DNA from: Bremerella volcania
GTDB taxonomy: Bacteria; Planctomycetota; Planctomycetia; Pirellulales; Pirellulaceae
DNA length: 64,000 bases
Direction of reading: 5' to 3'
Assembly (NCBI RefSeq): GCF_007748115.1
Contig: NZ_CP036289.1
Location: 6,076,001-6,140,000, forward strand
Shown: in pieces, positions 2,848 to 13,385 of the stretch
How positions within the stretch are numbered: position 1 is the first letter of the stretch
Layout: each line of letters opens with the position of its first letter
Translations under genes and position numbers: made by a program
The notes under the pieces: generated by a model
What the model was told of the DNA's origin: nothing
Databases searched by the model: none
What the model saw: only the letters and a program-made list of their open reading frames with translations

Positions 2848-3843
2848 TCACGGCTTGATCAGGATTTTCCCTGCCAGGGTGCCTGCTTGCCGCAATGTGT
2901 TGTCTTCCTGCAGCTTGTGGGCAGCCGCTGCTTCGGCCAGGGGAAAGATCTTCCCGATCTGCGGCTTCAGCTTCCCTTCCGAGAGCCACCGGCTGATCTG
3001 TTGGCCGCACACATCCATTTCCTCGGGGCTCACTTTGAACATCACGAACCCGTGCAGGCTGCATCCTTTCACATAGAACGGCCCCACGGGAAACTCCGGC
3101 CGGGCATCGCGGCCGGCCATCAGCACCATGCGGCAGCGCTCGGCGGCAATACTGACCAGAAAATCGAAGTCCGGCTCGCGGATCGTTTCCCAAATCACAT
3201 TCACCCCGGCGGGACAAACCTTAAGGACTTCCTCGGCGACGTTCTGTGTTTTGTAGTTGAAGACGTAGTCGGCTCCCAGTTCTTTGCACAGTTCCGCTTT
3301 CTCGTCGGAGCCTGCGGTCGCCAGAACGGTTGCTCCCATCGCTTTGGCCATCTGCACGACCATCGAACCGACGCCCCCAGAACCGCCATGCACGAAGATC
3401 GTTTCGCCTGTCTTCAGTGCCGCGTTGTCGGCACCCAGCCCCAAGTGGGCCGTCACGCCGGTCAGCGCGCACGCGGCGGCTGCGTCGTCGGAAACATTAT
3501 CAGGCGTGGCATACAACCAGTGCTCGTCCACCACGGCGTACTCGGCGAACGTTCCCTGGCGCCCGACCAGTCCCTGGTTCGTTCCCCACACGTGCTGACC
3601 AACCTGGTAGCGACTTGCGCCGGGGCCTACCTTTTCGATCGTGCCGGCCAAGTCACTACCGGTGACAAACGGCTTGGGCAGTTCCCAATAGTTGGCACCG
3701 TTGCGAATGTACGTATCGATCGGGTTGAGCGCTGCCGTAACGACTTTCACCAATACCTGACCTTCGCCCGGTTCCGGCGTGGGGATTTCACCAACCTGGA
3801 TGACTTCAGGGGGGCCCGTTTGTTCAATGTAGGCTGCTTTCAT
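2848..3843 (-). CDS. NADPH:quinone oxidoreductase-type MDR dehydrogenase
   Basis: 331 residues of the medium-chain dehydrogenase/reductase superfamily. It opens MKAAYIEQTGPPEVIQVGEIPTPEPGEG, the usual start of zinc-free quinone oxidoreductases, and carries the nucleotide-binding segment VHGGSGGVGSMVVQMAKAMG. No structural or catalytic zinc cysteines are seen in the usual places. Likely a cytosolic NADPH-dependent reductase of quinones or enones. ATG at 3843 is preceded by AAGGAAA; longer upstream readings have no such support. It ends 82 bp before the NHL gene and may be transcribed separately. Confidence 0.88.
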   Translation of the reverse strand: MKAAYIEQTGPPEVIQVGEIPTPEPGEGQVLVKVVTAALNPIDTYIRNGANYWELPKPFVTGSDLAGTIEKVGPGASRYQVGQHVWGTNQGLVGRQGTFAEYAVVDEHWLYATPDNVSDDAAAACALTGVTAHLGLGADNAALKTGETIFVHGGSGGVGSMVVQMAKAMGATVLATAGSDEKAELCKELGADYVFNYKTQNVAEEVLKVCPAGVNVIWETIREPDFDFLVSIAAERCRMVLMAGRDARPEFPVGPFYVKGCSLHGFVMFKVSPEEMDVCGQQISRWLSEGKLKPQIGKIFPLAEAAAAHKLQEDNTLRQAGTLAGKILIKP

Positions 3844-4016
3844 CAGTTTCCTTTCTTCGGGGTGATCGCCGCGTAATTTCTCCCCCCATCCTATCGCTCC
3901 TGCTATCGCAGACAAGTTAGGCCCGCGTCCACGCGAATGGAGTCTTCCAATTGTTTCCCTGGCCGATCGTATGTCAGAATAGCAGCATGCAAGCACACCA
4001 TTGAGGAGCACGCACC

Positions 4017-4796
4017 ATGAAGAACACTGCCCTGATCACCGGAGCCTCCAGCGGCATCGGCCGCGAGTTGGCCTGGGTCCATGCCGAGCACGGGGGGGAC
4101 CTGGTCTTGATCGCGCGGCGCGGGGAAGTACTCGAAGAACTCAAGCAGCAGATCGTCGAGAAGCACCAGGTCAACGTCCTGTGCATCGCCATCGACCTGA
4201 ACGAGCCAGGGGCCGTGCACCAGGTTTACGACCAGGTCGAGGCTGCCGGCATCGAGGTCGACTTCCTGATCAACAACGCAGGCTTCGGCAATCATGGCCC
4301 TTTCTATCAGCACGACTGGAAGACCGACGGCGCGATGATCCACCTGAACGTCACCGTCCTCAGCGAAATGACCCACCGCTTCGTGCAAGGAATGCTTGAG
4401 CGGCAACACGGACGCATCCTCAACGTCGGCAGCACAGCCGGCTTCTTGCCAGGCCCCATGATGGCGGTCTACTACGCCTCGAAAGCATACGTCCTCAGCT
4501 TCTCCCAGGCGATTAACGAAGAAGTCGCCGAACTGGGCGTCACCGTCACCGCGTTATGTCCCGGCCCGGTCGAAACGGATTTCTTCCAACGCGCCCACGC
4601 CAAGCACGTGGGCATGTTCAGAAAGGGCTCGACGGCCACCGCCCGCAGCGTAGCCGAGTTGGGCTACCGCGCGATGAAGAAGGGACGCCTGGTCGTGATC
4701 AACGAGTGGCGACTGTGGTTGCTACTCAACTGGATCACACCGTGGGTGCCGCGGCGGACGTTGTTGAAGATTTCGCGGTGGCTGTTGAGTTCTTGA
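4017..4796 (+). CDS. SDR-family NAD(P)-dependent oxidoreductase
   Basis: 259 residues, a classical short-chain dehydrogenase. Visible are the cofactor motif TGASSGIG at the N-terminus, NNAG after the fourth strand, the catalytic Ser in NVGSTAGF and the Tyr-x-x-x-Lys pair in YYASKAY, then PGPVETDF. The C-terminus has a hydrophobic stretch (LWLLLNWITPWVPRRTLLKI), so it may sit at the membrane. The substrate is unknown; the DltE/YdfG type is closest by eye. ATG at 4017 follows a strong GAGGAG site. It is divergent from the quinone oxidoreductase gene. Confidence 0.9.
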   Translation: MKNTALITGASSGIGRELAWVHAEHGGDLVLIARRGEVLEELKQQIVEKHQVNVLCIAIDLNEPGAVHQVYDQVEAAGIEVDFLINNAGFGNHGPFYQHDWKTDGAMIHLNVTVLSEMTHRFVQGMLERQHGRILNVGSTAGFLPGPMMAVYYASKAYVLSFSQAINEEVAELGVTVTALCPGPVETDFFQRAHAKHVGMFRKGSTATARSVAELGYRAMKKGRLVVINEWRLWLLLNWITPWVPRRTLLKISRWLLSS

Positions 4797-4978
4797 AGTG
4801 GCCTATTCGCTAGGACTACACAAAACACGAGTCAAGTCACGCAACAGCACCTTTGGACGATATCCATCGAAATTTTTGGTATATTATTAGCACGCAACTC
4901 TTTGGCAGATTGTTGGGCCCCTCGTGACCAACGCGCCGGATCCGCTCACATCTACACTTGTGCCACTTGAGGATCCAG

Positions 4979-6151
4979 ATGACTCCAACCGCGTTTTACC
5001 ATCTCGACGATGCAGACGAACTTAACTCTATTCGCGGAACAGACGATACCTTTTCTAGTCTTCCGTTCATCAAGTCAAACAACAGCAACAAATCCCAACT
5101 TGAAGGGGCGATATCGGGAACGCGATTCGAAAGAAGTCGATCCTACCTTAACCTTCTTCATGGTATCGATTGGCTAATTGGACCAGAAGCCGAAATTGAT
5201 ATCCTAAATCTTAGTCTCGGCTTGAAATCTCGTGATTTTAACGAACACGAACCATTACAAATTGCAACTCGATACGCATACCAATCCAACAAAGTTGTAG
5301 TCACCGCCGCTGGTAACGACGGCCCATGCGAGAACACGCTCCAAAGTTTGGCCCGTGCTCGTTGGGTAATCTCAGTAGGAGCAACGGACTGCGATCGCAA
5401 TCTGCTTGACCTCTCAAGTCGCGGTGTCGCCAACAAAATGTCCCCGACACTGGTTACCAATGGAGTACCCAATCCAGAGGATTATCAACACCCAAACATG
5501 CCCGAAACAGCAAGAAAATTCGGGCCCTCTACAAGCTTAGCGTGCGCAAGAATGAGCAGAATTGCCGCCTTTACGATGAGCATGATGCGTTTCTTGTTTG
5601 CTTGCATGGCAGAAGTACAACAAGCACATGTCTTAGGCATATTCGCTCCTCCAATTCGCTTTGTTGTAATTGGTTTTGCTGATACTGGCATATTTCCAGG
5701 ATATCAAGACCTCTGGAACCCAACTGTTCGGTCATTCATGGCAAACGGAAATACGAGCTATCAGGTCTCCTGTGACCACAACACCATCAAATCTCTCTAC
5801 GATATATTCTCTTTCTTGTTGGAAGAAAAACTAGCGATTGAACTGAGCACGTCTCCAGAAGCCGTTCGCACCTTCCTCAATGTCATGGCGATACCATTAG
5901 AGAACCGCAAATGCCATGAAGTTGGTTCGGGATATCTCGACCTTGATGTCGCAATTGACTTTTGGACAAATATTACCCCTGTTAAACTATTAAAAATATT
6001 GCTTCCTCGAAAACACCACGGCAAACTCGTATACCACTTTCAGGACAGCGGTCCGATTTTTCGCGATAGCTTTGTGATCTATCTTTCAGACATGGCTTCC
6101 CGCGGACCAACTCACGGCGATTGCGCCATGATGGGTTATCTGCGACACTGA
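4979..6151 (+). CDS. Subtilisin-like (S8) domain protein, its 3' end replaced by IS sequence
   Basis: 390 residues from ATG 4979 (a TTG at 4958 would add seven). Three S8 landmarks are in order: DILNLSLGL, VVTAAGNDGP (oxyanion Asn about residue 113) and ISVGATD, then STSLACARM, whose Ser (about residue 186) matches the catalytic Ser of the usual GTSMA. A late stretch, SPEAVRTFL through HEVGSGYLDLDVAIDF, matches the usual S8 C-terminal helix and turn. No counterpart of the catalytic Asp (DSG) or His (HGT) segment is visible upstream, and about 120 residues are inserted after the Ser helix. Activity is therefore doubtful. The last 12 codons and stop (6113-6151) belong to the IS; joining 6112 to 7382 restores six codons and a TAG at 7400. 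Base composition is more AT-rich than the flanks. It could be a pseudogene or a catalytically modified member. Confidence 0.75.
   Translation: MTPTAFYHLDDADELNSIRGTDDTFSSLPFIKSNNSNKSQLEGAISGTRFERSRSYLNLLHGIDWLIGPEAEIDILNLSLGLKSRDFNEHEPLQIATRYAYQSNKVVVTAAGNDGPCENTLQSLARARWVISVGATDCDRNLLDLSSRGVANKMSPTLVTNGVPNPEDYQHPNMPETARKFGPSTSLACARMSRIAAFTMSMMRFLFACMAEVQQAHVLGIFAPPIRFVVIGFADTGIFPGYQDLWNPTVRSFMANGNTSYQVSCDHNTIKSLYDIFSFLLEEKLAIELSTSPEAVRTFLNVMAIPLENRKCHEVGSGYLDLDVAIDFWTNITPVKLLKILLPRKHHGKLVYHFQDSGPIFRDSFVIYLSDMASRGPTHGDCAMMGYLRH
6103..6112. repeat. Target site duplication of the ISAs1-family element, left copy
   Basis: The 10 bases cggaccaact directly before the left terminal repeat are identical to those directly after the right one (7372-7381). 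Ten bases is within the usual range for ISAs1-family insertions. Confidence 0.95.
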
Positions 6152-7371
6152 GGCAATGGCGGTCAGGCGATTTTGTGACGGAGGTTGTCGCGGCCTGATC
6201 CGGTGTTCTCAGGTGCCTTTCTCATGTCGTCACGTTCGCCTGTTTCCCTTCAAGAGTGCTTTGCCGATCTGACCGATCCGCGGACTCGCAAGGTGACTTA
6301 TCCGTTAACGAATATCGTGACCATCGCGCTGTGTGCGGTGATGAGTGGGGCGGATGATTTTGTGGCTATCGCCGACTGGGCCGAGATGAAGAAGGAGTGG
6401 CTGGGTAAGTTCCTTGATTTGAGTTCCGGCATCCCTTCGCACGATCGCTTTAATGCGATCTTGGCTTCGCTGAATCCGGCTGAGTTTGAGAAGTGTTTGC
6501 TGACTTGGATCACCGCCTTACACGAAATCACCGACGGGCAGATCATCGCGATTGACGGCAAGACGCTGCGGCGGAGTTTCGACAAGGCCAGCAGCAAGGC
6601 GGCCATTCACATGGTCAGTGCCTGGGCGACTGCCAATCATGTGAGTCTCGGCCAGGTAGTAACCGACGCGAAGAGCAACGAGATCACCGCCATTCCCAAA
6701 CTGCTTGAAATCGTCGAGGTTTCCGGCAGTTTAGTGACGATTGACGCTCAAGGTTGCCAACAGGACATCGCTCAGAAGATCGTCGACCAGGGAGCCGATT
6801 ATTGCCTGGCCGTGAAGCGCAATCAGCCGACCCTCCACGATTCGATCGAAGATTTTTTTGTCGCGCAGCAGGAAAGCAATTTCAAGCGAGCCAAAGTACA
6901 CCGTCACGAAACGCACGAGAAAGGGCATGGTCGCGAGGAGTCGCGTTCCTATTATATCTGCCCTGTGAACGACGAGATCATCACACGAGATCGTTGGTCG
7001 AACTTGAGGGCGATCGGGATGACGATCAATATCGTGAAGCAAGGCGGGAACGAGACGAGCGAGGTGCGATACTATATCCTGAGCAAGTACCTTTCCGGCA
7101 AGCGTTTCGCCGAGGCCGTTCGCGGTCATTGGGGCATTGAAAACAGCCTGCACTGGCAACTGGACGTGACGTTCGGTGAAGATCAATCTCGCATCCGCAA
7201 AGGGCACGCCGACGCCAACTTTAGCCTGCTACGAAGGACGAGCCTGAGCCTGCTGAAGAACAACAAGACAGCCAAGGTCGGCGTGAAGAACAAACGATTA
7301 AAATGCGGCTGGGGCGATGACTACCGCATGGAAGTCCTGCTGGGACGGTGAGTTATGGTGCAATCGCCGTG
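6113..7371 (+). mobile_element. Complete ISAs1-family insertion sequence, 1259 bp
   Basis: Its borders are defined by terminal inverted repeats: the left end 6113-6129 reads CACGGCGATTGCGCCAT and the reverse complement of 7355-7371 reads CACGGCGATTGCACCAT, 16 of 17 matching. Both sides carry the 10-bp direct repeat cggaccaact. One transposase gene fills it. The perfect duplication and intact gene suggest a fairly recent insertion. It entered the last codons of the subtilisin-like gene and separated it from the Trypco2-like gene. Confidence 0.95.
6224..7351 (+). CDS. ISAs1-family DDE transposase
   Basis: 375 residues from ATG 6224, full length for the family. Family segments include QECFADLTDPRTRKVTYPL, IALCAVMSGADDF, IPSHDRFNAIL, the first-Asp segment IIAIDGKTLRRS, VTIDAQGCQ, DYCLAVKRNQ, YYILSK and GHWGIENSLHWQLDVTFGED with the late acidic residues. 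It catalyses movement of its own element. An earlier in-frame start at 6185 lies closer to the left repeat and is less likely. No frameshift or internal stop is seen, so the element may still be active. Confidence 0.95.
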   Translation: MSSRSPVSLQECFADLTDPRTRKVTYPLTNIVTIALCAVMSGADDFVAIADWAEMKKEWLGKFLDLSSGIPSHDRFNAILASLNPAEFEKCLLTWITALHEITDGQIIAIDGKTLRRSFDKASSKAAIHMVSAWATANHVSLGQVVTDAKSNEITAIPKLLEIVEVSGSLVTIDAQGCQQDIAQKIVDQGADYCLAVKRNQPTLHDSIEDFFVAQQESNFKRAKVHRHETHEKGHGREESRSYYICPVNDEIITRDRWSNLRAIGMTINIVKQGGNETSEVRYYILSKYLSGKRFAEAVRGHWGIENSLHWQLDVTFGEDQSRIRKGHADANFSLLRRTSLSLLKNNKTAKVGVKNKRLKCGWGDDYRMEVLLGR

Positions 7372-7381
7372 CGGACCAACT
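7372..7381. repeat. Target site duplication of the ISAs1-family element, right copy
   Basis: Identical to 6103-6112 and directly adjacent to the right terminal inverted repeat. Confidence 0.95.
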
Positions 7382-7403
7382 GTACATGCAAAGGTTGCCT
7401 AGC

Positions 7404-7877
7404 ATGCAAGAAATCGAATTGGTAATACAACAAATCAAGCGTGCAATATCAGATAGCCAATCAGATCTTTCTGATAGGAACATAGTCATTGATAAAGTCG
7501 AACTCGAAATCAACTCGATTCTAAAAGATGCACCGAGCGGCGCCTTTGAACTCGAATGGGGGCCTGTGAAATTTGGGGGAGGTGCAAGCGTTTCTGAAAA
7601 CCAAGTCACTAAGATCAAGCTTAGTCTTGTGCCTGTAGAGATAGAGTACGAACTCCTAGCACCTAAGATCCATGATAGACTTACACGTTCCTTAGAAAGC
7701 CTCCTTGCTACCGTTGATGAAGCTAACTCAACGCCTCCAGAGTTTGGATTTCAAATGGGATCGATCGAATTGTCGTTCGTTATTACCGAAAAAAGTGAAG
7801 TCAAAATCCTCGGGCTAGGAACAAAGGCTTCTTCATCGGAATCACAGAGAATCATACTTCATCTTAGACCAAAGTAA
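7404..7877 (+). CDS. Protein with two Trypco2-like domains
   Basis: 157 residues, soluble, no signal peptide. The C-terminal half (GSIELSFVITEKSEVKILGL, then SSSESQRIILHLRPK) closely fits the Trypco2 pattern: a strand ending in -IELxF-, a Gly/Ser-rich turn and a final LxLxP strand. The N-terminal half shows the same plan (KVELEINSILKDAPSGAFEL, then GGGASVSENQVTKIKLSLVP), so I read it as a tandem pair. Trypco domains are known from conflict-system operons where they accompany trypsin-like peptidases. ATG 7404 is chosen because AAGG at 7391 is well placed and the interrupted peptidase gene would stop at 7402, one base upstream; ATG 7386 is the alternative. The IS cuts it off from its original promoter. 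AT-richer than the flanks. The Trypco2 call is by pattern. Confidence 0.72.
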   Translation: MQEIELVIQQIKRAISDSQSDLSDRNIVIDKVELEINSILKDAPSGAFELEWGPVKFGGGASVSENQVTKIKLSLVPVEIEYELLAPKIHDRLTRSLESLLATVDEANSTPPEFGFQMGSIELSFVITEKSEVKILGLGTKASSSESQRIILHLRPK

Positions 7878-8004
7878 ACTTTGGGGCGTTTCTCTAGTTG
7901 CAAGACTCGAAAGGCTTGAGGGCTTCATTGGTAGTGGCAACCAAGTCGACCTGCGAGCATGGCATTGAGGATGTGACTTTGTTGCAGCAGGTCCGAAAAC
8001 CGAA

Positions 8005-8724
8005 CTACGGCTCTTCCCCCGAGAGCTTCATCATCGACTTCAGCTTCGCGAGGGAATCGTCGTGATACATTTCGACGTCCAGGTAGTCGGACGTCGGGCT
8101 GGTGGTGATCACGAGGGTTCCGCCGGTCGGCTGATCATCGAGGGTCGCCCAGGCCGCGAAGGTTTCTGGCGACATCTCGTTCGGCTCGCTCCAGAAGACC
8201 GGGTTGGCATGGTCCGCAATCACCGCCATTGCGGCTCCGCCGCTGGTGATGCCCTCGCCGGCCGCGGTTGGGCTCGTGCTGAGCACTGTGTCTGGTCCCG
8301 CTAACGCGACGAAAGGGGTGTGGGTTTCTCGAATGTCGCGCGGCAGGTAAATGCTTTCGTAAACCAGCGGCATCCACTGGGCTGCGGCCAGGTTGGTCTC
8401 GGTATCCCATGGCTGATCGAGGTCGAATTCCTGATACAGCTGATCGCTGAACATGTACGGCAACAACAGCACGCGCCACGAAAGCAGCGGCGTGCCGTCC
8501 TGGTCGGTCGTATAGGCCGGCGGGTAGGCGCCGTAGTCCTGATGATATTCCTGCAATGCCATCGCGATCATCTTCATCTTATTGGTCACCACGACCGGCT
8601 TGGCATACTCCGACGCGATCATCAAGTAGACGACTCCCCCCACCACCAAAATAACGATGAGGATTCCAACGAGCGCAAGGAATCCTAGAAAGGTTTTGGC
8701 GGGCGAGCTTGATTCGTTTTCCAT
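8005..8724 (-). CDS. DUF1559-type membrane-anchored protein without prepilin motif
   Basis: 239 residues from ATG 8724. One transmembrane segment (TFLGFLALVGILIVILVVGGVVYLMIA) near the N-terminus, then a segment typical of DUF1559: MKMIAMALQEYHQDYGAYPP, LLSWRVLLLPYM and DQPWDTETN. Unlike the other DUF1559 proteins here it lacks FTLVE and the C-terminal H-x9-D motif. It is probably exported and anchored with a large outer domain; the role is unknown. Reading could extend to 9099, but that sequence shows no recognisable domain. Confidence 0.75.
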   Translation of the reverse strand: MENESSSPAKTFLGFLALVGILIVILVVGGVVYLMIASEYAKPVVVTNKMKMIAMALQEYHQDYGAYPPAYTTDQDGTPLLSWRVLLLPYMFSDQLYQEFDLDQPWDTETNLAAAQWMPLVYESIYLPRDIRETHTPFVALAGPDTVLSTSPTAAGEGITSGGAAMAVIADHANPVFWSEPNEMSPETFAAWATLDDQPTGGTLVITTSPTSDYLDVEMYHDDSLAKLKSMMKLSGEEP

Positions 8725-9405
8725 GAGATCGTCTTTACTGTTAGTGTGCCAAACAGTTTGAAGCGAAATCGCATCGTAGCGATTGCCCACACACGACTCA
8801 AGTTCGTAAGGCACGGCTGCTGTGGCTCGTCTCGCATCGGATCGGATCATACAGTCGACGTTGTTGCAGCCATCGCAGTGGCTGGGGGCGTAGCGGAAAA
8901 AGCATGCCAGCGAGTGTCGGTGGATCTCCAGATTCATGATCTCGACATCCGGACCGAAACCATAATTCTCAAAATGGGTTAACTCCACCACTACCCCCCC
9001 TCCCTTTCGAACAGAACACCATCCCATAAAGGGAATCCTTCTCACGAGCGATCCCTTCGCGGCGTTAGTTTCGAAAAGCCAAAACTTGCACACCAGCAAA
9101 GCAATCTGAGACCCAACGCACCCGCCAAGCTTCTCATTGGCCCAGCGAGATATTTCGCAATATCGAGCCTTATTCTTAGGCGAGAAACTCGTTCACAAGC
9201 AAGCTAAGTACTTTGCCTACTTTCGATTTCCCACTGCTGTGCCTGGGAAAAAAAGGACCGCGACTCATTTCCACACATTTACCATTGCAATTATTTTTTA
9301 ATAAAAAATCACATTCCCGTAGATTCGCAAATCGGGTGTGGGTAGAATCGGCGACCGTCTTATCATCCTTCTCTTTTCCAACCTCTCGAGATCAGGAATT
9401 CACCC
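8725..9405. other. Intergenic region between divergent DUF1559 genes
   Basis: Long spacer with short open frames on both strands that match nothing I recognise. An AT-rich stretch at about 9285-9320 and the string CCCGTAGAT (9315-9323) upstream of the 9406 gene probably lie in its promoter or leader. No RNA gene or repeat was recognised. Confidence 0.5.
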
Positions 9406-10413
9406 ATGGCTTCGTATCTCACCCGGAACCGCCGCGGTTTCACACTCGTGGAACTGCTTGTCGTTATCGCCATCATCGGGGTTCTCATCGCCTTGCTACT
9501 TCCGGCCGTTCAACAGGCACGCGAGGCGGCCCGGCGAATGTCGTGCAGCAATAACTTCCGACAGATGGGAATCGGGCTGCATAACTACCACGACGTCATG
9601 AAGCGATTTCCCATTAACTGGTACAACGGTTCCGGCCGCGGCGGAAACAACATGTGCGTCTTGATCGGCCTGTTGCCGTTCATCGAGCAAACGGCCTTGT
9701 TCGATGGAATTGACATGAAAGATACGAACCTCACGCTTTATACCGTCAACGGAAAGCGTGTCTGCGATCATCAGATTGAAGCGTATCAATGCCCCAGTGA
9801 CCCTGACGTCGAAACCAACAACCCAACCACTGGGGCCGCGCGATCCAGCTACGCACCCAGCATCGGCTCGCAGTTCATGCAGTCGGCTGCCGGTTGCGAT
9901 CTTCTGGCGACCGCCGGGGCGTTTCCCTCAGGCATGGGGCTCGATACCGACAACGACGGCGAAGACCCCTTCAACCGTGGTAACGTGCGTTCAGACTATG
10001 GCGAACAAGCCGTTTCCGGTCCGTTCGGTCGTGGTTACTTTACTCCCTACTCGGCTCGAATCGCGGACATTACCGACGGCACGTCGAACACGATTCTCAT
10101 GGGCGAGATCCGCATGACCTGCCAGACCTTCGCTTCCTGGGGATGGTCGTGGCCAGATTCGCTTTGGTACGCGACAACTGCCCCCATCAACTTTCCGACC
10201 TGCCCCGGAGATGCTCGGTATGGCACGAACACCTGCTTCTCTAATGCCAGTAACAACTGGAATGCCACCTTCGGCTTCAAGTCGGCACACCCCGGTGGGT
10301 GCCAGTTTGTCATGGGTGACGCCTCGGTCCACTTCCTGCCCGAGACAATCGACCGCCTAACCTATGCCCGACTCGGCGACAAGTCCGACGGGGGGGTGAT
10401 CGGCGAATTCTAA
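9406..10413 (+). CDS. DUF1559 protein with prepilin-type N-terminus
   Basis: 335 residues. The N-terminus has the type IV prepilin/type II pseudopilin signal [20 protein letters not shown] with the cleavage Gly at residue 11 and Glu five residues into the mature part, then [14 protein letters not shown]. The C-terminus has the planctomycete motif beginning HPGG, but with D-A-S in place of the usual D-G-S. It is likely processed by prepilin peptidase and carried to the envelope; the role is unknown. It is paired with the lipoprotein gene 90 bp downstream, the first of six such modules in the window. Confidence 0.9.
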   Translation: MASYLTRNRRGFTLVELLVVIAIIGVLIALLLPAVQQAREAARRMSCSNNFRQMGIGLHNYHDVMKRFPINWYNGSGRGGNNMCVLIGLLPFIEQTALFDGIDMKDTNLTLYTVNGKRVCDHQIEAYQCPSDPDVETNNPTTGAARSSYAPSIGSQFMQSAAGCDLLATAGAFPSGMGLDTDNDGEDPFNRGNVRSDYGEQAVSGPFGRGYFTPYSARIADITDGTSNTILMGEIRMTCQTFASWGWSWPDSLWYATTAPINFPTCPGDARYGTNTCFSNASNNWNATFGFKSAHPGGCQFVMGDASVHFLPETIDRLTYARLGDKSDGGVIGEF

Positions 10414-10503
10414 CGGTGCGGACCATCACGCCACGCAGCATCAATTTCATCCCAGTCGACAACGCCCGCTTACCACATCCGATTTTTAAGGACACGGCCG
10501 AGT

Positions 10504-10968
10504 ATGTCCCACAATAGAATTCTAGCGCTGTCTCCCATGTTGTTGGTTCTCGTGACCGGTTGCTGGTCTTCAGGCGGGCCGACGACCTATCCTGTGAAAG
10601 GACTGGTTCAATACGAAGGGAAGCCAGTCGAAGATGCCACGGTCACGCTGATTCCCAAGCAATCGGACGGACGTTCTGCCAGCGGAACGACCAATGCCGA
10701 AGGTACCTTCGAAGTGACGACGTACATCTCGCCGTCACTTCAGGCACCCGGTGCGATGCCTGGTGAGTATGACATCGTCGTCAGCAAGATCGAAGTCCGC
10801 GAACTGGATCCCGATCTCAATCCTCAGGAAGCTCAAGCGGCATTCCAGAAGCTGGGACCGCCGAAGAACCTTCTTCCCAAGAAGTACCGCAGCCCGAACA
10901 CCTCTGGACTGTCGGTGACCATCGAAAACGGCTCGCCGGAACCGCTGGCACTCGATCTGGCCGACTAG
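10504..10968 (+). CDS. Lipoprotein with carboxypeptidase-regulatory-like fold (module partner)
   Basis: 154 residues. The N-terminal signal ends in the lipobox LVTGC, so it is probably lipidated at Cys 19. The body YPVKGLVQYEGKPVEDATVTLIP is the prealbumin/carboxypeptidase-regulatory-like pattern, then SGTTNAEGTFEV and MPGEYDIVVSKIE. Small surface-exposed beta-sandwich of unknown ligand. ATG 10504 follows AAGGA. The DUF1559 gene lies upstream and the kinase gene follows 104 bp later. Confidence 0.85.
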   Translation: MSHNRILALSPMLLVLVTGCWSSGGPTTYPVKGLVQYEGKPVEDATVTLIPKQSDGRSASGTTNAEGTFEVTTYISPSLQAPGAMPGEYDIVVSKIEVRELDPDLNPQEAQAAFQKLGPPKNLLPKKYRSPNTSGLSVTIENGSPEPLALDLAD

Positions 10969-11072
10969 TCGGAACGGCCCAATTGCCCCTAAAACTTCTC
11001 CCACGGGTCCCATTGGGCAACTAAACTTGAGGAAGTACCAGCTCAACTCGCTTCCTTGGGACCTTACTTCGC

Positions 11073-13385
11073 ATGCCTTCTGATCAAGCCCCAGTTCCTG
11101 ATGCTCGTTATGCGGAAACGATGGCCGGCTCCAGCGGTGATTTCAGCAAGGAGCAACAAGACATCGCCGTGGCAGCGCTGATTCTGCGTATGGGGGTCAT
11201 CTCGGAACGCCAGTTGTCTCAGGCCCTTTCCACTTGGACACTGCACGGCGATCTTCCTCTGCACGAACATTTAGTCGCGCTGGGGCAGATCGACGTCGAC
11301 ACCTGCAACATGCTGATCGAACGAAGTCCGTCGCTGCTGAAGGAAGTCACGCCGGCCAGCGATACCGGCTTTACCTCGGCGGAAACGGTCGTCGCGCGGA
11401 CGCTCGACTCGGTCGACCCTTCCGGAGCGATTGCCCGACTGATGGGAATCCGTAGCGTCTCAGGCTCGGGTGCCAACGACGCCACCGGCGTGCGTGCGTC
11501 GATGGCTCGCTACCGACTGATCCGCAAGCTCGGCCAAGGGGGGCTGGGTCGCGTCTGGCTGGCCTACGACGAACATCTCAAGCGCCCCGTCGCCGTCAAA
11601 GAAGTCACCGCCCCCGATCAATCGGCGGCCCAAGAGCGTTTTCGCCGCGAAGCAGAAATCACCGGTCGGCTCGAGCATCCTGGCATCGTCCCTATTTATC
11701 ACCTGGGGGAAGACCTCGAAACCGGCCAATCCTTCTACGCAATGCGTTTCCTCGGCAAGCAAACGCTGCACGATACGATTCAAGAATATCACGAACGCCT
11801 GAGCGAAGGGGAACACAACCCGATGCTCTTGCGGCGGCTGCTGACCGACTTCGTCAACGTTTGCCAGGCCATCGGCCATGCCCATTCGCGCAAGGTCATT
11901 CACCGCGACCTGAAGCCTGAGAACGTCGCCATCGACAACTTCGGCCAGGTGATCGTGATCGACTGGGGCATCGCCAAAGTCATCAACGAATTGCAAACCA
12001 GCGACAGCCAGTCGAGCACGCACGCCTCGCACCCCAGTAGTCAAAGCACGATGGATGGCCAGGTTCTCGGGACCCCCCTGTACATGGCCCCCGAGCAAGC
12101 CGCCGGCCGCATTGACGAGTTGGACGAACGCACCGACATCTACGGGCTCGGCGCAATCCTCTTCTCGATCCTGGCCGGGTGCGGTCCCCATGAACATACG
12201 CGGAACGCTTCCAACTCGGTCAACGGCCGAGAACTGTTGACGGCGATCGCCGGTCAGCCAACACCCAATGCCGCCGATGTGAACCCCGACGTCGACCCCG
12301 CGCTGGCCGCCATCTGCGCCAAGGCCATGGCCAAGCGACAATATGCCCGGTATCAATCGGCGTCGGAGCTTGCCGAGGAAGTGCAGCGCTGGATGGCTGG
12401 CGAAAAGGTCGATGCCTATCGCGAGCGCCCCGAGCAGCGGCTGGCACGCTGGATTCAGCATCATCGCATCGCTTCGCAACTTGTGGGCCTGGTGCTGGTG
12501 ACCTGCCTGGTCGCGATGACGGTCTTCGTCGTCGACTCGTACAAAGCCAGGAAGGCCGCACGCCAAAGCCGCTTCGATCAAATGCAGGCCTACAGCCGTG
12601 AACTGGAAGTCCAACTCAAAGCCACCGCCGAGAGCCTCTCGAAAGATGTTCGCTTCATGTCGAGTCTCCCGCCCATCCAAGGCATCATCCAGGCTAACGG
12701 CGACAACGCGGAAGCCGAGCCTGAAGACGTCTGGCGCGATCGTCTCGAACAGATTTACGAAGAGTTCCTGCGAGCCAACGTCGAGTACCTCTCGATCAGC
12801 TTCACCAAGATCACCGACGAAGCCGCGGAAGACGTCGTGTGCGTCGAGCGGAATGCCCGCGACCCCGCCTACCTGCGTCGTGTGCCAGCGTCTCGACTGA
12901 CGACCCATAACGAACCGGAGATCCTCGCCCAGGTTTCGCGGCTCAGCCAGGGAGACATCTTGCTAGCCATCCGCAGCGCCGACGATAAAGAAGACGATCG
13001 CGTCGAAGAAGGAGTGCGCCTGGTCGCGATCACGCCAATCTACGACTCAGCCACTGGCAGCCTGTTCGGCGCGGCCGTCATCGCGATCGATCTGCGGCAC
13101 CAGATCGTCGATTTCCTCACCGAGTTGGACCAAGGCACGTCCATCATTCAAGTCACCGATCGCCAAGGCAAGGTCTGGGTTCGCGACACGCCGGAAGATG
13201 GCGTCATCGAAACCAATAAACCGACCAGCATCACGAGCGAACTCCCCGAGTTGAAACTGTTCTTCGACGACCAAGAGACGAAGCACTATAGCGATCCCAG
13301 CGACGGCGTGATCGCCTCGAAGGTGTTGCTCGATCACTTCAACGGGACCACCGCCGTGGGCATCGTACTGGAATTGGTCGAATAA
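11073..13385 (+). CDS. Membrane Ser/Thr protein kinase with PDC-type sensor domain
   Basis: 770 residues. Residues 1-100 are a helical N-terminal region. The kinase spans about 147-430: glycine loop LGQGGLGRVW, Lys 176 in VAVKEV, HRDLKPEN at 277-284, D-W-G at 297-299 instead of DFG, and APE near 339. One transmembrane segment lies at about 466-488, followed by an outside domain of about 270 residues with the layout of double-Cache/PDC sensors (LKATAESLSKDVRFMSSLP, AAVIAIDLRH). It probably phosphorylates cytosolic targets in response to a ligand outside the membrane. No HAMP or second output domain follows. It is 104 bp downstream of the lipoprotein gene. Confidence 0.88.
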   Translation: MPSDQAPVPDARYAETMAGSSGDFSKEQQDIAVAALILRMGVISERQLSQALSTWTLHGDLPLHEHLVALGQIDVDTCNMLIERSPSLLKEVTPASDTGFTSAETVVARTLDSVDPSGAIARLMGIRSVSGSGANDATGVRASMARYRLIRKLGQGGLGRVWLAYDEHLKRPVAVKEVTAPDQSAAQERFRREAEITGRLEHPGIVPIYHLGEDLETGQSFYAMRFLGKQTLHDTIQEYHERLSEGEHNPMLLRRLLTDFVNVCQAIGHAHSRKVIHRDLKPENVAIDNFGQVIVIDWGIAKVINELQTSDSQSSTHASHPSSQSTMDGQVLGTPLYMAPEQAAGRIDELDERTDIYGLGAILFSILAGCGPHEHTRNASNSVNGRELLTAIAGQPTPNAADVNPDVDPALAAICAKAMAKRQYARYQSASELAEEVQRWMAGEKVDAYRERPEQRLARWIQHHRIASQLVGLVLVTCLVAMTVFVVDSYKARKAARQSRFDQMQAYSRELEVQLKATAESLSKDVRFMSSLPPIQGIIQANGDNAEAEPEDVWRDRLEQIYEEFLRANVEYLSISFTKITDEAAEDVVCVERNARDPAYLRRVPASRLTTHNEPEILAQVSRLSQGDILLAIRSADDKEDDRVEEGVRLVAITPIYDSATGSLFGAAVIAIDLRHQIVDFLTELDQGTSIIQVTDRQGKVWVRDTPEDGVIETNKPTSITSELPELKLFFDDQETKHYSDPSDGVIASKVLLDHFNGTTAVGIVLELVE

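What the first reader, a model, noticed from the sequence alone, without database searches (positions are those of the whole stretch)
4797..7877. A subtilisin-like / Trypco2 gene pair, a likely conflict system, split by an insertion sequence
Removing the IS leaves a subtilisin-like gene ending at 7402 and a Trypco2-like gene starting at 7404, an operon-type spacing. Trypco domains are known from bacterial conflict systems where they accompany trypsin-like peptidases; here the companion is S8-like instead. The pair sits in an AT-richer island between housekeeping-like genes, which fits horizontal gain. I infer a peptidase-based defence locus with an unusual protease partner.
Basis: partly seen in the sequence, partly recalled or inferred. 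Interest (0 to 1): 0.78.

Follow-up and report, generated by a model that had tools for sequence, protein, structure and literature searches.

The report
Broken subtilisin–Trypco2 gene pair
A recently acquired pair of bacterial genes, half of a subtilisin-like protease followed by a small protein of a kind that usually accompanies defence proteases, looks like the remnant of a defence locus that a jumping gene has since split; the pairing was not found anywhere else.

Summary
An ISAs1-family element (6113-7371, 10-bp target duplication, 16 identical full copies in the genome) separates an S8-like gene from a Trypco2 gene. Read across the empty site, the S8 frame ends at 7402 and the next gene starts at 7404. 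The small protein is a genuine Trypco2 (51 bits; cut-off 24.2) with a second, Pepco-like copy of the domain. The segment is AT-rich and absent from the eight other genomes of the genus.

Two corrections. First, only the C-terminal half of S8 is there: the oxyanion Asn and catalytic Ser are present, but no Asp or His motif is recognisable in any frame or anywhere in the window. The IS changes only the last six codons, so the serious damage is at the 5' end. Second, the S8-Trypco2 pairing is a singleton here: none of 26 other Trypco2/Pepco loci has an S8 gene, 80 S8 loci had no Trypco-like neighbour, and no homologue of this S8 turned up in 395 order genomes.

Best reading: a horizontally acquired, decaying two-gene remnant of a Trypco-associated peptidase system, probably inactive. 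A weak Asp-like motif after the Ser leaves a rearranged subtilisin formally open.

The parts
4017..4796 (+). left flank: short-chain dehydrogenase, conserved through the genus
   Evidence: PF00106 160 bits; 71-93% identical orthologues in 8 genus genomes
4979..6148 (+). S8-like (subtilase) gene; likely start ATG 4979 after a GAGG Shine-Dalgarno-like site; the frame now runs 12 codons into the IS (HGDCAMMGYLRH)
   Evidence: PF00082 E 1.2e-16 over profile 95-255 only; AF2 core matches subtilisins at Z about 10
5315..5317 (+). oxyanion-hole Asn codon (AAGND)
   Evidence: invariant column N113 in alignment A6
5534..5536 (+). catalytic Ser codon (PSTSLACARM, aligned to SGTSMATP)
   Evidence: invariant column S186 in alignment A6 (layout shown)
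5660..5782 (+). FVVIGFADTGIFPGYQDLW ... CDHNT: Asp-box-like motif located after the Ser, with an His 32 residues on
   Evidence: Asp-box PSSM reached by 4/2000 shuffles and 4/465 other ORFs; His box not supported
6103..6112 (.). target-site duplication, left copy (CGGACCAACT)
6113..7371 (+). ISAs1-family insertion sequence, 1259 bp
   Evidence: inverted repeats; 16 identical copies; NF033564 414 bits
6185..7351 (+). ISAs1 transposase
7372..7381 (.). target-site duplication, right copy
7382..7402 (+). displaced last six codons and stop of the S8 gene (VHAKVA*)
7404..7877 (+). Trypco2/Pepco protein, 157 aa, AAAGG upstream of the ATG
   Evidence: PF19631 51 bits and PF24393 29 bits; split into halves
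7416..7634 (+). first domain copy, Trypco2
   Evidence: PF19631 40.8 bits on the N-terminal half alone
7647..7841 (+). second domain copy, Pepco/Trypco2-like
   Evidence: PF24393 29 bits in the whole protein, 24.9 bits alone, below its cut-off

Best explanation
This is a horizontally acquired, decaying two-gene remnant of a Trypco-associated peptidase system. The upstream gene encoded a subtilisin-family protein; what remains keeps the helix-sheet core, the oxyanion Asn and the catalytic Ser, but not a recognisable Asp/His half, so it is probably inactive. The downstream gene encodes a small double-domain Trypco2/Pepco protein that starts one base after the protease stop. By analogy with trypsin-Trypco2 and caspase-Pepco operons, the small protein would bind or hold the peptidase and couple it to a sensor, the peptidase being the effector (inferred, not shown). 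The pair landed in a variable spot between a dehydrogenase and a kinase gene. A recently active ISAs1 copy then hopped in six codons before the protease stop and parted the two genes. Shown: IS anatomy, the domain identities, absence of recognisable Asp/His motifs, foreign composition, absence from congeners, no other S8-Trypco2 pair found. Inferred: shared function, inactivity, any defence role.
For: Trypco2 and Pepco matches. S8 match limited to the C-terminal half, with no N-half signal in any frame of 4700-5250 or in the window. Five of the six other S8 domains found in the genome are near-complete. IS boundaries, TSD and 16 identical copies. Low GC3. Genus comparison: G088 has only about 76 bp between the dehydrogenase and the kinase-flank homology, and G032 lacks the pair but shares the neighbouring DUF1559 and 154-aa genes. 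Trypco2 beside trypsin, iSTAND and MoxR/VMAP genes, and Pepco beside caspase-SAVED or caspase-iHD-CE genes, in other genomes. Trypco domains were defined as neighbours of trypsin-like peptidases in VMAP conflict systems (PMC7159879).
Against: The S8 frame is still open for 390 codons and its putative start has a Shine-Dalgarno-like site, which fits a maintained gene. The AF2 model puts the N-terminal strand on subtilisin strand beta1, with Asp10 where Asp32 would be if the stretch is ungapped (low confidence, pLDDT about 55), so part of the N-half may survive in altered form. No close homologue shows what the intact gene looked like. Trypco2 also occurs with signal peptides and without a visible peptidase neighbour (L012, L155, L156), so it does not prove a conflict system.
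Confidence: 0.55

Rival explanations
1. A maintained pseudoprotease pair: the short S8 protein is a natural, inactive, peptide-binding module regulated by Trypco2, and the IS has merely uncoupled expression.
For: Long open frame; Shine-Dalgarno-like site before ATG 4979 (read); inactive peptidases are common in related systems (PMC7159879).
Against: No homologue with this architecture in 395 order or 391 phylum genomes; no Asp/His half detectable.
Confidence: 0.17
2. Accidental neighbours: a truncated S8 fragment and an unrelated Trypco2 gene brought together in a variable spot.
For: No other S8-Trypco2 pair among 26 Trypco2/Pepco loci or 80 S8 loci; in the trypsin loci examined Trypco2 lies upstream of its partner, here it lies downstream; the SDR-kinase spot is variable.
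Against: One-base spacing after the S8 stop and matching low GC3 fit one transferred operon.
Confidence: 0.17
3. A subtilisin with rearranged catalytic order (Ser, then Asp, then His): FVVIGFADTGIFPGYQDLW and an His 32 residues on would supply the missing residues.
For: Asp-box score reached in 4/2000 shuffles and 4/465 other ORFs; Asp-His spacing 32, within the 30-64 range of 51 canonical S8s; AF2 predicts a strand ending just before the Asp and a helix starting at the His.
Against: N-half HMM gives only 3.3 bits; the His box scores far below canonical and lacks HGT; pLDDT about 40-55 over the strand region; no homologue.
Confidence: 0.05

Closest known systems
Trypco2-trypsin operons of VMAP/iSTAND/STAND-TPR conflict systems (PMC7159879; here L161, L162, L016, L017, L165)
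   Same: Trypco2 protein encoded beside a serine peptidase in a short operon, often on mobile DNA
   Different: peptidase is S8, not trypsin; Trypco2 is downstream, not upstream; two domain copies; no MoxR, vWA, VMAP or STAND gene seen nearby
Pepco-caspase pairs (caspase-SAVED CBASS in L015; caspase-iHD-CE in L011 and L014; caspase-FGE in L157 and L158)
   Same: the second half of the small protein matches Pepco; Pepco sits next to a peptidase gene
   Different: partner is S8; no SAVED/CD-NTase or iHD-CE domain seen nearby; Trypco2 and Pepco-like copies are fused
PADLOC 'subtilase' model (PDLC03014), which I take from memory to be the subtilase of IetAS
   Same: partial match of the S8 core (21.5 bits)
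   Different: weak match; no AAA ATPase gene adjacent
Subtilases such as subtilisin BPN', Tk-SP and PatA
   Same: core fold, oxyanion Asn and catalytic Ser
   Different: Asp/His half not recognisable; about 85-residue insert between the Ser helix and the C-terminal helix

Membership tests
Peptidase family S8 (subtilase) | S8 domain profile match | tested here: met
   PF00082 61 bits, cut-off 21.8, but only profile positions 95-255 of 288
Peptidase family S8 (subtilase) | catalytic Asp and His motifs N-terminal to the Ser | tested here: not met
   no N-half signal in any frame of 4700-5250 or in the window; structure-based Asp10 is a low-confidence suggestion
Peptidase family S8 (subtilase) | catalytic Ser and oxyanion Asn | tested here: met
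   S186 and N113 fall in invariant columns
Trypco2 (PF19631) | profile match above the gathering score | tested here: met
   51 bits, cut-off 24.2
Pepco (PF24393) | profile match above the gathering score | tested here: met
   29 bits, cut-off 27 in the whole protein; 24.9 bits, below cut-off, for the C-terminal half alone: borderline
VMAP/ternary conflict system | MoxR ATPase, vWA and VMAP or iSTAND gene in the same neighbourhood | tested here: inconclusive
   the proteins scanned or compared at about 4-13 kb are SDR, DUF1559 proteins, a 154-aa lipoprotein-like ORF and a Ser/Thr kinase-like ORF; not every ORF of the window was scanned
Trypsin-Trypco2 pair | trypsin-like peptidase gene adjacent | tested here: not met
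   the adjacent peptidase matches S8 only
ISAs1 family insertion sequence | ISAs1 transposase, terminal inverted repeats, short TSD | tested here: met
   414 bits; 17-bp repeats; 10-bp TSD here and in 5 of 7 other copies inspected
Anti-phage defence system | protection against phage | not testable with these tools
   needs experiment

The most novel reading that the evidence does not exclude
A subtilisin-family protein whose catalytic residues occur in the order Ser-Asp-His, with the Asp/His segment placed after the Ser helix, working with a tandem Trypco2/Pepco cofactor in a new kind of conflict system.
Probability: 0.05. Interest if true: 0.8.

Novelty: new variant of a known kind. Interest (0 to 1): 0.33.

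Why it matters
If the pair is functional elsewhere, Trypco/Pepco proteins would be general peptidase cofactors spanning trypsin, caspase and subtilisin effectors, which would point to a shared way of controlling unrelated proteases. The weak cross-matches between Trypco1, Trypco2 and Pepco seen here, and a single protein carrying both Trypco2 and Pepco-like copies, support one superfamily. In this genome the locus itself is probably a dead remnant, so its value is mainly as a lead.

Tried and rejected
Recurrent S8-Trypco2 pairing: sought through order and phylum genomes, GTDB contigs, viral contigs, plasmids and phages: none found. The second GTDB scan used short conserved S8 peptides and returned only generic subtilases at 28-42% identity, so a close relative lacking those peptides could have been missed. 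Asp/His half displaced elsewhere in the window: no convincing hit. AF2 of the Trypco2 protein from a single sequence: pLDDT 35, unusable. Viral structure search: only generic subtilases. Rfam on 3500-12000: no match. One phylum Trypco2 hit (L004) lies in a PilM-like protein and was set aside. In the PDB second look, a family that is not listed is not thereby excluded.

Full report
Observation. The segment 4797-7877 holds an S8-like frame, an insertion sequence and a small protein gene. The insertion sequence is ISAs1 family with 17-bp inverted repeats and a perfect 10-bp target duplication. The genome carries 16 identical full copies and one fragment; of the eight full copies whose flanks were read, six, including this one, are bordered by an identical 10-bp repeat. 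Read across the duplication, the S8 frame ends in VHAKVA and a stop at 7400-7402, and the small gene starts at 7404.

The protease. Pfam S8 matches from profile position 95 to 255 only, whereas five of the six other S8 domains found in the genome are near-complete. Alignment with 20 S8 sequences from GTDB contigs places the oxyanion Asn and the catalytic Ser in invariant columns. A profile of the Asp/His half built from 51 complete subtilases finds nothing in any frame of 4700-5250 and nothing convincing in the window. An AlphaFold2 model built with an alignment of the core only has mean pLDDT 58; its core superposes on subtilisins at Z about 10 (172 residues, 4.1 A for PatA), and an order-preserving alignment starts at model residue 2 on subtilisin residue 24, so that Asp10 could lie at the Asp32 position, at low confidence and without a matching His. 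An insert of about 85 residues between the Ser helix and the C-terminal helix contains an Asp-box-like motif with an His 32 residues later. The Asp part scores better than all but 4 of 2000 shuffles, but the His part is unlike any canonical His box, so a rearranged subtilisin is only a lead.

The small protein. It has two copies of a helix-plus-strands domain: the first is Trypco2 (40.8 bits alone), the second Pepco-like (24.9 bits alone, slightly under the cut-off; 29 bits in the whole protein). Two Pepco proteins weakly match Trypco1, and the Pepco-like half of the window protein weakly matches Trypco2, which suggests one superfamily.

Neighbours elsewhere. I examined 26 other Trypco2 or Pepco loci. 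Trypco2 lies directly upstream of trypsin-like peptidases, in some cases followed by MoxR genes or with the peptidase fused to VMAP or iSTAND domains, or upstream of TPR/STAND proteins. Pepco lies beside caspase-SAVED (next to a CD-NTase gene, a CBASS arrangement), caspase-iHD-CE and caspase-FGE genes. Some Trypco2 genes have no peptidase neighbour in view. A profile for S8 finds no S8 gene in any of these loci but finds the window's. Conversely, 80 S8 genes from GTDB have no Trypco-like gene within the fetched flanks, up to 6 kb. The published definition of Trypco domains ties them to trypsin-like peptidases (PMC7159879). The sample is not exhaustive: plasmid loci dominate, one probe was modelled on actinobacterial proteins, and flanks were 1.5 to 10 kb.

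Origin. GC3 is 0.44 and 0.38 in the two genes against 0.83 and 0.74 in the flanking dehydrogenase and kinase genes. In the eight other genus genomes the dehydrogenase is present and the pair is absent. In G088 only about 76 bp separate the dehydrogenase from sequence homologous to the kinase flank, while G032 carries the adjacent DUF1559 and 154-aa genes but not the pair. The site is therefore a variable spot. The S8 protein has no homologue at E 1e-6 in 395 other order genomes, and only generic subtilases in the phylum.

Mechanism. Shown: adjacency, foreign composition, domain identities, IS history, absence of a recognisable Asp/His half. Inferred from the families: an intact system would keep a peptidase in check through the Trypco2/Pepco protein until a sensor signal, then release it on cell targets. 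Here the likely state is inactive, with expression of the second gene uncoupled from the first by the IS.

Verdict. The S8-Trypco2 combination is a new variant if it was ever functional, but it rests on a single, damaged locus.

Noticed in passing
window 4797-10972; L036, L038, L039: The stretch between the dehydrogenase and kinase genes is variable in the genus: about 76 bp in G088, DUF1559 plus 154-aa genes in G032, and LRR-type and other genes in G441.
   Followed up: partly
window 6113-7371: The ISAs1 element has 16 identical full-length copies and one 3' fragment in the genome, a sign of a very recent burst.
   Followed up: yes
L012:7685-8347, L155, L156: Trypco2 proteins in two genomes of another class of the phylum carry apparent signal peptides and have no peptidase gene in view, so Trypco2 alone does not mark a conflict locus.
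   Followed up: partly
L015:6920-10499: A Pepco gene heads a CBASS-like operon (caspase-SAVED plus CD-NTase) on an Oscillatoria plasmid.
   Followed up: partly
L011, L014: Pepco genes sit directly upstream of very large caspase-iHD-CE proteins with HSP90-associated wHTH regions in a distant planctomycete and on an Azospirillum plasmid.
   Followed up: no
L157, L158: Pepco-like genes follow caspase-FGE fusions on rhizobial plasmids.
   Followed up: no
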